64,000 bases of DNA from Candidatus Mnemosynella biddleae. Its GTDB lineage: Archaea > Halobacteriota > Archaeoglobi > Mnemosynellales > Mnemosynellaceae. Location of the stretch: NCBI GenBank assembly GCA_002011165.2, contig MTMI02000001.1:92174-156173 (forward strand), given 5' to 3'. Positions 10,285 through 45,046 of this stretch are shown piece by piece. The notes under the pieces are model-generated. The model made no database searches, was not told the DNA's origin, and worked only from the letters and a program-made list of their open reading frames with translations. Position 1 is the stretch's first letter. Each line of letters begins with the position of its first letter. The position numbers were made by a program, and so were the translations under genes.

Positions 10285-10991
10285 AAACTTAAACACTCAA
10301 ACTCCTTCAATCTCTCCTTCAACTCATCCTCCATTCTCCTCTTAACCTCTTCCAGCTTCATTCTAAGTTCCTCTGAGATTTCCTCTTTGAGAATAGAGTT
10401 TACGAGTTGAAGAACATGATTTGCTCCTGCAACTTCTTTATCACAATCTCTTCCAAATCTTGGGGCTCTACAATTATAACAGATGGAGAGAGCGAATCTA
10501 TTCAGATTCTCCTCGCTGATCTCCTTACCTATAATCTCTTTAACTGCTTCTCTTGTTGAAGTGCATGGAGATTCTCTGAGAATTTCTACGTTTTCCAATT
10601 TTCTTCCTTTTAGCTTAACTTTAAATTCTGGAATTCCGAAATGCTTTGCATACTCGTCAATCTCCTCAATTCCAGTATCATCTCTTAGCATACACATAGT
10701 TTTTGGAATGACAATCCTAGAATTGATCTCATGAATCTGTCTGTGAAAACCTCTTCCGAAAGATACACCGAGAATCATTGGTTTTCTCTTCTCTGCAACC
10801 GATAGAACAACGTCAGGGTGGCGATGATATGAAATGTAGAGATTGCACTCCGGTAACTCTACTTCAAGTTCATCATCTATAATCTGTGAGAGAGGCATCG
10901 GAATGAAGATCCACTCCACTCTGAAGACTCTCCCAATGTTCTTATATGCTCTATCTCCGTATTTCCCATCACTAATTATCCCAATCCTCAT
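10281..10991 (-). CDS. DUF166 family protein
   Basis: A 236-aa protein matching the archaeal DUF166 family. Typical features are MRIGIISDGKYGDRAY at the N-terminus, a central GVSFGRGFHRQ, and several Cys: CMLRDD, SPCTSTRE and CYNCRAPRFGRDC. The Cys cluster may bind metal or an Fe-S centre. Some databases label the family thymidylate-synthase-like, which I would not rely on. The gene starts 3 bases after a tiny zinc-ribbon gene, and its 3' end overlaps the convergent ACT gene by 4 bases. Its function is unknown. Confidence 0.8.
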   Translation of the reverse strand: MRIGIISDGKYGDRAYKNIGRVFRVEWIFIPMPLSQIIDDELEVELPECNLYISYHRHPDVVLSVAEKRKPMILGVSFGRGFHRQIHEINSRIVIPKTMCMLRDDTGIEEIDEYAKHFGIPEFKVKLKGRKLENVEILRESPCTSTREAVKEIIGKEISEENLNRFALSICYNCRAPRFGRDCDKEVAGANHVLQLVNSILKEEISEELRMKLEEVKRRMEDELKERLKEFECLSF

Positions 10992-41449: not shown

Positions 41450-41529
41450 GAGATCATTTGTTGATAATAAAATTCCTGACGCACTTCGTAAAATTTAAAA
41501 TTTCGGGTTCTCAAATTTATTAATAACTA

Positions 41530-42559
41530 ATGGTCAGAATGGGCGGTGTAGGGTTAAAAGCATTTTTGGTACTTGTATTATTTATTGTGGCACTCTTGTT
41601 TGTGATTGCCTATGAAAAAACCAATATTCAGATTGCCTCTGAAGAGGAGTATTTGCCTTTAAAATCCAACACCGAGGAAGAAAAATATCAAGAGAAAAAT
41701 AAGCGTGAGGTGAATATGAAGAGTTTACCGGTCTTATTGAAAGTATAGTAAAAGCTGAGAGAATAGCGGAGAACTGTTATTTATTGGAAATATCCTGAGT
41801 TCAGTATTTATGTTTCTAAAGGAACATGTGAAAAAGCTGAGGGAAAATACTCTTTCACCTATAAAGATGTGACATTCATTTTCGATGATGAGAGGGTCTT
41901 AGATATTTTAGAAAAAGAGACTAAAGACCCCAAAACAGTAGAGAAGTTGATGAATAATTTGGAAAAAATAGGAAATTCTATAATTCTTCTGGAATCAGAT
42001 GATGGGATAAACTGGAGAAAAACAGGAATTATCGTAGCAAAGGATGGAAGCGTTCCAAATCTTGTTGTAGATTATGAAGGAAGACTTCGTTTATATTATG
42101 TTTCTTTTCGAAGTTATTCTAATAAATGGAAAATACAGATTATATACGAATCTCGGAATAGTGGCAGAAGCGGATGACGGTATTGATTTCCAAGAAATAG
42201 GTTTTTCACAACCAATAATGGATCCCACTGTTTTTGAAATTAATGGAAAGTGATATATGATTGGCTGGGATGAAAAAGGAATTTATCTCTTTTCTTCAAA
42301 GGATGGTGTGAATTTCGTTAAAGAGAAGAATTTGGATTTAGACGGGAGAATATGTGATGCTATGAAGATGAATAATCTTATTTATCTTTACTGTTATTCA
42401 GAGAGGAATGGGAAACCCGTAATATTTCTGTTTAAGAGCAAGGATGGAATTAATTGGGATGAGTATGGAGTTGTGTATGAAAGTGATGAAAAAATAGCTG
42501 ATCCAACCGTTGTGTTTTTCAACGGGAAATATTATATGGCGCTTACCAAATATAAGTGA
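41530..42559 (+). pseudogene. Broken gene for a secreted, membrane-anchored beta-propeller protein
   Basis: Four frame segments combine into one protein. An N-terminal membrane anchor (FLVLVLFIVALLFVIAYEKT) is followed by a linker, EEFTGLIESIVKAER, then YWKYPEFSIYVSKGTCEKAE. Repeated blades follow with DGINW-type motifs (ESDDGINWRKTGI, DDGIDFQEIGF, SKDGVNF, SKDGINWDEYG) and YYMALTKYK. Such blades resemble GH43/GH32/GH130-like propellers. There are about three frameshifts and an in-frame TGA at 42251, where NGKxYMIG suggests an original Trp. Probably inactive. Confidence 0.7.
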
Positions 42560-42959
42560 AGACGATTAATGATGTTAACGATTAGAGCAAGTTAGCAAGT
42601 TTTTAAATGTCTCCTTTTGAGGGGTCGAATAAAACAAATCGCATTCAGCGTAAGCCAGAACAATTTTTGTATTTCATATTACTTGTTAATTTCAAAAAGT
42701 TTTGAGCTCCTTAGTAAAAGAATATTTCCTAAGCTTTGATTCCTCGATAAATTTGCCAACCTAGTTCATAGTTGCTAAAGTTTTTTTACGTTTTTTAGAG
42801 TAGAAAGAATTATAGAAAAGAAAAATTTAATTTATTTCAATTATCATTCAAAAATTGAAATTTTCTAGGGAAACTTGGAAAATTGGAGTTTAACGAAAGG
42901 TTATCTCCAGCGCCTTTTCAAAAAAATTTATAAAATAAAAAAAACAAAATATAAATATC
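42560..42959. other. AT-rich intergenic region before the nuclease module
   Basis: Four hundred AT-rich bases with no gene of note. The only element I can support is TTTATAAAA at 42928-42935, about 30 bases before the next ATG, which suits a TATA box for a leaderless transcript. Base composition differs from the flanking core genes, which are rich in GAGAG-type codons. Confidence 0.45.
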
Positions 42960-43133
42960 ATGAGTATTGGACATTTCTTTAAAAAGGTTGGAACAACAAT
43001 TGAAAAACAAGTAAAGAGATCTCAAATTAACTCAAAACGAGAAGAAGAAATAAGAATTATAAAAGAAAAATACCTTTCTCAACTTTCTCATCGTGAATTA
43101 GTTCAAATCTATAAAACATATTTCGAGGAGTGA
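42960..43133 (+). CDS. Small charged protein preceding the nuclease-like gene (57 aa)
   Basis: Just under the ORF-track cutoff: MSIGHFFKKVGTTIEKQVKR..., with a second half that is a charged helix (KREEEIRIIKEKYLSQLSHR, ending YKTYFEE). A TATA-like box sits 30 bases upstream. Its stop is three bases before the next gene's GTG, and its last codons supply GAGGAG as that gene's ribosome site, so the two form a unit. The family is unknown. It might be a partner, adaptor or antitoxin, but no evidence decides. Confidence 0.6.
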   Translation: MSIGHFFKKVGTTIEKQVKRSQINSKREEEIRIIKEKYLSQLSHRELVQIYKTYFEE

Positions 43134-43136
43134 AAC

Positions 43137-44039
43137 GTGTCAAGAAAAAAGACGAGAAAAACGAGAGGAAAAAGTAGAAAAAAGGAAGAAGATATTTTTG
43201 GTTTAGATTTTGATGTGTCAAAAATTGAGATTCCTAAAATAGAGATGTCTTCTCTAGATTTTGGTTTTTCAAAACAGAGAAGAACAACAAGAAAAAGTAG
43301 AAGAAGAGAAGATATATTTGGCTTAGATTTTGAAATGCCGAAAATAGATGCACCTCCTTTGGATTTTGGACTTGATGAACAGAAAAAGATGAATCTTAAT
43401 AAAATATCAAAAGTAAAACTTGTCGAAATTCTTTCAAGGCAACTTTCTACAAATCAAATTTATCAATCACTTATTCGCTTAGGTAAACACAGATTGGCGG
43501 ATGAGTTCTTAAATGAGATAGAATTTGTAAACAAAAAATATGATAAAATCCTTATGGAAATAGATGGAAAAGTTGAGAAGGCTGTTGGAGATAAAATACT
43601 TGGTGTTGTGGTAGATGAGATTATAACTTATATGAGAAGATTATATTCCATTTCATTTAAACCTAAAGACGAAATAGACTTCCATAAACAAATAGAACCA
43701 TTTCTTAATGGACTTGTTTCTGTGTTGGAAGGCTCTCTCACAAAATTTGGTTGGAAAGTTAACATAAATAGAGAATACAAACTTCCTTCAAACGAAAGGA
43801 TAGATTTATTGATCTCTATAGGCGGTGCAAAAATCGGAATAGAAGTTAAGTATGATTTAAAAGAGACGTCAAAACTTCAAAGATTACTTGGACAAATTGA
43901 TAGATATATTCCTTATTTGGATTTACTCATCGTAATCTCGTATTATCCTTTGAATTCAAATACGATTAATACTATCAAGAATAAAGAGATTGAAAAAGGA
44001 AAGCCAATAAGAGTAATAACTCCAAATAAAATAGTCTAA
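43137..44039 (+). CDS. Protein with duplicated EDIFGLDF motifs and PD-(D/E)XK nuclease-like domain
   Basis: A 300-aa protein, GTG start. Residues 4-84 hold two copies of a unit: a basic run (TRKTRGKSRKK or TTRKSRRR), EDIFGLDF, then KI and LDFG. Residues 90-190 are helical. Residues 195-300 look like a PD-(D/E)XK fold: D223 in ERIDLLI, E236 and K238 in GIEVKYDL, and Q253 in RLLGQIDRY. The fold occurs in restriction enzymes, nickases and mobile-element proteins. It is AT-rich and next to a pseudogene, so probably acquired. I know no family with this architecture. Confidence 0.75.
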   Translation: MSRKKTRKTRGKSRKKEEDIFGLDFDVSKIEIPKIEMSSLDFGFSKQRRTTRKSRRREDIFGLDFEMPKIDAPPLDFGLDEQKKMNLNKISKVKLVEILSRQLSTNQIYQSLIRLGKHRLADEFLNEIEFVNKKYDKILMEIDGKVEKAVGDKILGVVVDEIITYMRRLYSISFKPKDEIDFHKQIEPFLNGLVSVLEGSLTKFGWKVNINREYKLPSNERIDLLISIGGAKIGIEVKYDLKETSKLQRLLGQIDRYIPYLDLLIVISYYPLNSNTINTIKNKEIEKGKPIRVITPNKIV

Positions 44040-44062
44040 AATTTCAGCGCCTCTACTCACCC

Positions 44063-44083
44063 AATTTCGCAAGGCGCGAAATT
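44063..44083 (+). terminator. Hairpin after the nuclease-like gene
   Basis: AATTTCGC, a five-base loop AAGGC, then GCGAAATT form a perfect 8-bp stem, 24 bases after the stop codon. It could end the transcript or protect it. There is no strong T-run, so it is not a classic archaeal terminator. Confidence 0.45.
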
Positions 44084-44185
44084 TCATATATCTCCAAAAC
44101 GCTAACAGAACTTGTAGTTTAGGAGGATGATAAAATAGCAGTAAAAATATCATGTGAGAACGTTATTTATAAATTCTCCAAGTAC

Positions 44186-45046
44186 TTGAAGCCCGTGGCT
44201 CATGTGAAGCTAAAGGATGTAGTTATTTTTGAAACTTTAGATGCATTGAGCAATCAAATAAAAGATGAAAATGTAAGATTAGAGACAATAGATTTGACTA
44301 AAAGAAATCCTGCCACGGGTCCGATCTATGTGGAGAATGTTGAACCCGGTGACACTTTGGTTGTTGAGATTCTAGACGTAGCTCCTAGTGAGAGGGGTTG
44401 GATCCGAGTTTATCCTGGAGGAGGGGTGCTCCACGATAAGTTGTTTAAACCCAAGGTAAAGTTATTGCATCTTGAGAATGAAACTGTAAAATTTAACAAC
44501 ATAGGGATGCCAATTAAGCCAATGATAGGGGTTTTAGGTGTTGCTCCGTCTGAAGGAGAGTTTCCCACGATAACACCAAGCTATCACGGAGGTAACATGG
44601 ATGTAGCATTGATAACTAAAGGCAGTAAAGTATATCTTCCGGTGTTTGTAGAGGGTGCTCTTTTAGCATTAGGAGATCTTCACGCTGTACAAGGAGACGG
44701 AGAGATCTGTTCCACAGCAGTTGAGATTTCAGGAGAGGTTAAAATTAGGTTAGATGTAATTAAGGGGATGAGACCCAAATATCCCATTGTCGAGCTTGAA
44801 GATTCATATTCGATAGTAACTTTTGGTCACAGCCTAGATGATGCACTTTACAGAGCTTCTGAAGAAGTTGTAAAAAGTTTAATGAGGGCTCATGGACTTG
44901 AGTTTGAAGAGGCTTACATGCTCTCAAGCCTGATAGTTAATTTAAGAGTGAATCAAGCGGTCAATCCAATGAGAGGTATTAGAGCCGAAATACCCAAAAA
45001 ATATGTCAAATTGAATGATCTATTAAATTACGGCCAGAGCCCGTAA
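44186..45046 (+). CDS. Acetamidase/formamidase family protein, start region disturbed
   Basis: A 286-aa product of the FmdA/AmdA family (FETLDALSNQI, NPATGPIYVENVEPGDTLVV, GDLHAVQGDGEI), which hydrolyses formamide or short amides to acid and ammonia. The listed start is a TTG without ribosome site. The frame continues upstream in family-like sequence (KISCENVIYKFSKYLKPVAH) back to 44123 without ATG or GTG. AGGAGG is at 44121, and an ATG right after it is out of frame by one base in an A tract. So the true N-terminus is about 16 residues longer, or the gene is damaged. Confidence 0.75.
   Translation: MKPVAHVKLKDVVIFETLDALSNQIKDENVRLETIDLTKRNPATGPIYVENVEPGDTLVVEILDVAPSERGWIRVYPGGGVLHDKLFKPKVKLLHLENETVKFNNIGMPIKPMIGVLGVAPSEGEFPTITPSYHGGNMDVALITKGSKVYLPVFVEGALLALGDLHAVQGDGEICSTAVEISGEVKIRLDVIKGMRPKYPIVELEDSYSIVTFGHSLDDALYRASEEVVKSLMRAHGLEFEEAYMLSSLIVNLRVNQAVNPMRGIRAEIPKKYVKLNDLLNYGQSP

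What the first reader, a model, noticed from the sequence alone, without database searches (positions are those of the whole stretch)
42960..44039. Unrecognised two-gene unit: 57-aa protein plus EDIFGLDF-repeat protein with PD-(D/E)XK nuclease-like domain
The second protein has two copies of a basic-patch + EDIFGLDF + LDFG unit at its N-terminus, and a C-terminal D223/E236-x-K238 core suited to a nuclease. The first is a tiny charged protein whose last codons provide the ribosome site for the second. The pair is AT-rich, has its own TATA box and ends in a hairpin. It sits beside a pseudogene, as acquired defence or mobile-element modules often do. The repeated motif could be a docking peptide for a host factor. 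I know no described system with this layout, but function is unproven.
Basis: partly seen in the sequence, partly recalled or inferred. Interest (0 to 1): 0.65.

Follow-up and report, generated by a model that had tools for sequence, protein, structure and literature searches.

The report
Travelling two-gene nuclease cassette of archaea
Two adjacent genes, one for a DNA-cutting-type protein with an intact catalytic site and one for a 57-residue helical partner, have been passed as a pair between very distantly related archaea and kept under selection, but what the pair does is not yet known.

Summary
A 57-aa gene (p1, 42960-43133) and a 300-aa gene (p2, 43137-44039) form one AT-rich, translationally coupled unit. 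p2 has two exact EDIFGLDF copies and a complete PD-(D/E)XK site (E198, D223, E236-x-K238, Q253); AlphaFold2 gives that fold and Foldseek finds Avs4, AF1548 and Ecl18kI. The same pair occurs as an isolated insertion in six other archaeal genomes, four phyla in all. Five copies are 72-80% identical in p2 (a housekeeping protein of two of these hosts: 49%), with dN/dS 0.11-0.18. It is absent from the one congener and 57 other same-class genomes. So it is a real, selected, horizontally spread module, not a core gene. p1 matches no family; p2 of the window matches none above cutoff; nothing in phages, plasmids or viral contigs; no recognised defence genes beside it. Weakened: the doubled motif is optional (3 of 7 copies) and the hairpin is not conserved. 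New: an IFG(L/F)DF peptide on a basic tail also occurs in a distant one-gene PD-(D/E)XK family, at the other terminus. Best reading: a genome-conflict nuclease (defence or toxin type) with a binding partner. Function and mode of movement are unproven.

The parts
42888..42914 (+). GC-rich block GTTTAACGAAA...AGCGCC upstream of the TATA box, shared by four copies of the unit
   Evidence: alignment of seven loci; position; role unknown
42927..42934 (+). TATA box TTTATAAA of the p1-p2 message (probably leaderless)
   Evidence: sequence, conserved in relatives
42960..43133 (+). p1, 57-aa basic helical protein
   Evidence: homologs 47-86% identical in six other genomes, always before p2; two helices in AlphaFold2
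43125..43130 (+). GAGGAG, end of p1 and likely ribosome site of p2
43137..44039 (+). p2, 300-aa PD-(D/E)XK nuclease-like protein
43188..43211 (+). first EDIFGLDF (p2 residues 18-25)
43308..43331 (+). second EDIFGLDF (p2 residues 58-65)
43671..44018 (+). PD-(D/E)XK domain (p2 residues 179-294; E198, D223, E236, K238, Q253, Y257)
   Evidence: AlphaFold2 order helix-3 strands-helix-strand-helix-strand; Foldseek; invariant residues
44040..44083 (+). 3' hairpin, significant in the window copy but not conserved among relatives
41450..45027 (.). 3.6-kb stretch absent from the congener G001 (72-aa ORF, pseudogene, p1-p2, acetamidase gene)

Best explanation
A horizontally spread two-gene nuclease module of the genome-conflict type (anti-element defence or toxin-like). 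Shown by sequence: p1 and p2 travel together as one coupled unit between archaeal phyla and stay under purifying selection; p2 has an intact PD-(D/E)XK catalytic core, a helical middle and a predicted disordered basic arm with IFGLDF-like peptides. Inferred: p2 cuts DNA with metal ions; p1, made just before p2 from the same message, binds the helical middle of p2 and holds, positions or activates it; the basic arm touches DNA and the IFGLDF peptide docks on another protein or another copy of p2. Confidence in the anatomy and the horizontal spread is about 0.9; the number given here is for the conflict-nuclease function.
For: Same pair in seven genomes of four phyla with scattered presence; 72-80% p2 identity among five hosts against 49% for CysS of two of them; dN/dS 0.11-0.18; AT-rich units in GC-richer hosts; nuclease fold and intact site; PDDEXK_4 above cutoff in L011; Foldseek neighbours include defence nucleases Avs4 and the CRISPR ancillary nucleases Can2/Cdn1; p2 helical middle modelled with higher confidence when p1 is in the chain (62-72 to 87-89).
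Against: No copy lies beside recognised defence genes; PADLOC matches are weak and only around the catalytic motif; no methylase or other protecting partner; the AlphaFold2 hint rests on 5-6 sequences without an interface score; no activity was ever measured.
Confidence: 0.4

Rival explanations
1. A very small self-moving element: p2 is the nuclease that moves the unit (homing or TnsA-like), p1 an accessory.
For: Isolated insertions at different intergenic sites, some by tRNA or rRNA genes; a second truncated copy in G389; shared flanking blocks in four copies; 14-bp perfect inverted repeat around the L011 copy.
Against: No inverted or direct end repeats above shuffles in six of seven copies; one copy per genome except G389; insertion sites are not alike, as homing would need; no recombinase or transposase in the unit.
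Confidence: 0.22
2. A classical toxin-antitoxin pair: p2 is a DNA-cutting toxin, p1 the antitoxin translated first.
For: Small gene first, tight translational coupling kept in all copies; mobile, sporadic distribution; weak similarity to Tox-REase-9.
Against: No known antitoxin family or DNA-binding domain in p1; p1 is basic and highly conserved, unlike many labile acidic antitoxins; no nuclease of this type listed in the type II survey PMC2701414 as far as a term search shows.
Confidence: 0.2
3. An acquired DNA repair or recombination factor whose IFGLDF peptide docks on a conserved replication or repair protein.
For: Foldseek neighbours include Bax1 and archaeal Holliday-junction resolvases; the motif on a basic tail recurs in a second family.
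Against: Rare and sporadic, absent from nearly all relatives; not next to repair genes.
Confidence: 0.13

Closest known systems
PD-(D/E)XK nuclease superfamily, Pfam PDDEXK_4 (PF14281)
   Same: Catalytic core, fold order, Q-x-x-x-Y after the E-x-K strand; L011 is above the Pfam cutoff
   Different: Window p2 is below the cutoff (20.6 against 22.3 bits); the disordered IFGLDF arm and the p1 partner are not part of the family
One-gene archaeal PD-(D/E)XK family found here (L003, L005, L006, L025, L026, L057, L058)
   Same: Profile match 96% over the core; lysine-rich tail ending IFGFDFNP in L025 and FGFDFNP in L005
   Different: Single gene, up to 184 aa, motif at the C-terminus, no p1; L006 lacks the motif
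phrog_5928 (phage protein, unknown function) and NCBIfam sce7726
   Same: Matches over the nuclease core, E 8.8e-7 and 0.0095 for the window protein
   Different: Only the core aligns; sce7726 score far below its cutoff; no phage record encodes a relative at tblastn level
Defence nucleases: Avs4 nuclease domain, Can2/Cdn1, PDC-S26
   Same: Fold of the nuclease domain; weak PADLOC profile match
   Different: No NTPase, sensor or ligand-binding domain; different partner; no defence context

Membership tests
PD-(D/E)XK nuclease superfamily | Acidic residue plus (D/E)-x-K motif on adjacent strands | tested here: met
   D223 and E236-V-K238, invariant in seven copies
PD-(D/E)XK nuclease superfamily | alpha-beta-beta-beta-alpha-beta core | tested here: met
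   AlphaFold2 at pLDDT 68-88 for the domain; Foldseek to Avs4, AF1548, Ecl18kI, best E 0.002
PD-(D/E)XK nuclease superfamily | Metal-dependent nucleic acid cleavage | not testable with these tools
   needs an assay
Type II toxin-antitoxin system | Two coupled genes, small partner first | tested here: met
Type II toxin-antitoxin system | Known antitoxin fold or DNA-binding domain in the small protein | tested here: not met
   p1 has no Pfam, NCBIfam, PADLOC or PHROG match of weight
Type II toxin-antitoxin system | Toxicity relieved by the partner | not testable with these tools
   needs expression tests
Restriction-modification system | Cognate methyltransferase beside the nuclease | tested here: not met
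   no methylase gene in the unit; units are isolated in every locus
Integron gene cassette | attC site behind the gene | tested here: not met
   no RYYYAAC...GTTRRRY pair behind any of seven copies; a simple pattern test, not the HattCI model
Insertion sequence or transposon | Terminal inverted repeats | tested here: not met
   only L011 exceeds shuffles (14 bp, fraction 0.007 for one of seven copies tested)
Insertion sequence or transposon | Target duplication at an empty-site comparison | tested here: inconclusive
   no relative with a clean empty site found; in G001 the whole 3.6-kb stretch is absent
Known anti-phage defence system (PADLOC) | Match to a system model over most of its length | tested here: not met
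   PDC-S26 57-107 of 351 positions, E 2.3e-4; nothing for p1

The most novel reading that the evidence does not exclude
An undescribed archaeal conflict system: a PD-(D/E)XK nuclease armed with reusable IFGLDF-type docking peptides and a co-made helical partner, exchanged as a minimal cassette between DPANN archaea and unrelated archaeal lineages; the shared peptide marks a common host or viral target used by at least two nuclease families.
Probability: 0.3. Interest if true: 0.72.

Novelty: new variant of a known kind. Interest (0 to 1): 0.5.

Why it matters
It offers a compact, testable nuclease module that crosses archaeal phylum borders, including into small DPANN archaea, in which RM and CRISPR-Cas are reported to be underrepresented and compact systems enriched (PMC12988326). 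If it is a defence or toxin unit, it adds an archaeal system missing from the libraries searched; if it is self-mobile, it would be a very small element without known ends. The IFG(L/F)DF peptide gives a handle for finding its partner.

Tried and rejected
Phage, plasmid and viral-contig searches with p2, p1 and the short family found nothing. Sequence search of solved structures: nothing relevant. Integron cassette: no attC pattern. Insertion sequence: candidate ends GTTYAACGA / TCGTTRAAC looked inverted in several copies by eye but do not exceed shuffles. Empty sites: the G389 relative has different surroundings; no other genome of the G396 family is held. Homology between p1 and the middle of p2: none. 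IFG(L/F)DF in other host proteins: two further hits in 12 genomes lie in chance frames of 43-47 codons. Conserved 3' hairpin: not conserved. Paper searches found no description.

Full report
WHAT IS THERE. EDIFGLDF is at residues 18-25 and 58-65, each after a basic patch and followed by a stretch ending LDFG. D223 and E236-V-K238 are present; the alignments add invariant E198, Q253 and, in six of seven, R256-Y257. The end of p1, GAGGAG, is the likely ribosome site of p2. In relatives the junction is TAAAACATG, TAAAATG, TAAATG or TAATG, sometimes in another frame, so coupling is conserved and read-through is not needed. The TATA box at 42927 suggests a leaderless p1 message (inference).

RELATIVES. 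The genome has one copy. The one congener and 57 other same-class genomes have none. Full pairs were found in G389 (complete single-contig genome, same phylum; plus a truncated second copy, L007), a DHVE2 archaeon (L008), a Woesearchaeota MAG (L009), an archaeon whose copy lies 62 bp or so behind its own 23S rRNA gene (L010; its genome was drawn from the same phylum as that of L009), an Aenigmatarchaeota MAG (L011) and G414 of that same phylum (L024). Frequencies of the full p2 are low: 2 of 394 genomes in the window's phylum, 2 of 156, 2 of 371 and 1 of 390 in the three others. p2 identity is 72-80% among the five close copies, 57-60% to L011 and 39-45% to L024; p1 follows. dN/dS of p2 is 0.11-0.18 among close copies, with dS 0.7-1.2. 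CysS of L009 and L010 is 49% identical and saturated at silent sites, while their p2 is 72% identical. With the scattered hosts this shows horizontal transfer. The units keep 25-32% GC even where the surroundings are 40-52%. Host contigs are long in most cases (69-394 kb or a whole genome), so misbinning is unlikely except for L008 (14 kb) and L024 (5 kb).

LOCAL HISTORY. In G001 the GTPase gene and the Sec61-beta gene are directly adjacent, so window 41450-45027 is a variable stretch of 3.6 kb: a 72-aa ORF, a glycosidase-like pseudogene (frame change and stop), p1-p2 and an acetamidase gene. Whether it was gained here or lost in G001 cannot be told from two genomes.

STRUCTURE. AlphaFold2 of p2 on six sequences leaves residues 1-86 disordered, gives helices 92-171, then helix, three strands, helix, strand, helix, strand, the PD-(D/E)XK order, mostly at pLDDT 68-88. 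Foldseek finds the Avs4 nuclease domain, Ecl18kI, XisH, AF1548, EcoT38I and BamHI, best E about 0.002. Libraries: PDDEXK_4 4.7e-4 for the window and 2.5e-6 (above cutoff) for L011; phrog_5928 8.8e-7; sce7726 and PDC-S26 weak. With p1 read through into p2 (TGA read as Trp, only to obtain one chain), p1 is two helices with pLDDT up to about 90, and the helical middle of p2 rises from 62-72 to 87-89 while the nuclease domain does not. This hints that p1 packs there; the alignments are shallow, so it is a lead only. p1 has an amphipathic N-terminal helix in all seven copies (reached by at most 0.3% of shuffles).

THE MOTIF. The doubled arm is in three copies only; L004, L009, L011 and L024 have one, more or less degenerate. 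A distant single-gene family, linked by profile comparison (96%), has a lysine-rich tail ending in IFGFDFNP (L025) or FGFDFNP (L005), though L006 lacks it. An exact DNA scan for IFG(L/F)DF in 12 genomes gave six hits: three in p2, one in this family and two in chance frames of 43-47 codons; the reversed-pattern control gave none. So the peptide looks like a real shared short motif that can sit at either end of a PD-(D/E)XK protein. Its binding partner is unknown.

MOBILITY. Copies lie alone in intergenic places, some by RNA genes. There are no terminal repeats above shuffles except 14 bp in L011, no attC pattern and no recombinase in the unit. L011 has an integrase fragment about 2 kb away. 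Four copies share GC-rich flanking blocks of unknown role. The carrier is therefore unknown.

MECHANISM. Most likely a conflict nuclease with its partner (0.4), against a self-moving element (0.22), a classical toxin-antitoxin pair (0.2) and an acquired repair function (0.13). Shown: pairing, selection, transfer, intact catalytic core. Inferred: cutting, p1 binding, docking, biological role.

NOVELTY. The nuclease domain belongs to a known superfamily; the two-gene layout is not in the libraries or papers searched. It is a new variant of a known kind.

Noticed in passing
window 41869-42559: Glycosidase-like (weak GH43, E 0.003 for the last piece) pseudogene with a frame change and an internal stop, just upstream of p1.
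   Followed up: partly
window 44123-45046: Acetamidase/formamidase gene whose reading frame opens at 44123 but has no ATG near its expected start (AGGAGG then ATA, or an internal TTG at 44186); its end overlaps the Sec61-beta gene.
   Followed up: partly
window 41450-45027: 3.6-kb stretch missing from the only congener, in which the GTPase and Sec61-beta genes are adjacent.
   Followed up: yes
L007:1426-1931: Second, truncated copy of the unit in G389, 0.77 Mb from the intact one: a decayed relic.
   Followed up: partly
L025:66-584, L005:1297-1851, L006:1303-1818, L057:1561-2082: Distant one-gene PD-(D/E)XK family with no Pfam family of its own, several members with an FGFDFNP-like C-terminal peptide.
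   Followed up: partly
L011:9775-9788 and 10712-10725 (approximate): Perfect 14-bp inverted repeat (TGAGTTTAGACGCC) closely flanking the L011 unit, better than 99% of shuffles.
   Followed up: partly
L057:1127-1360: A 77-aa HNH endonuclease gene (HNH_3, E 8e-10) just upstream of a member of the one-gene family.
   Followed up: no
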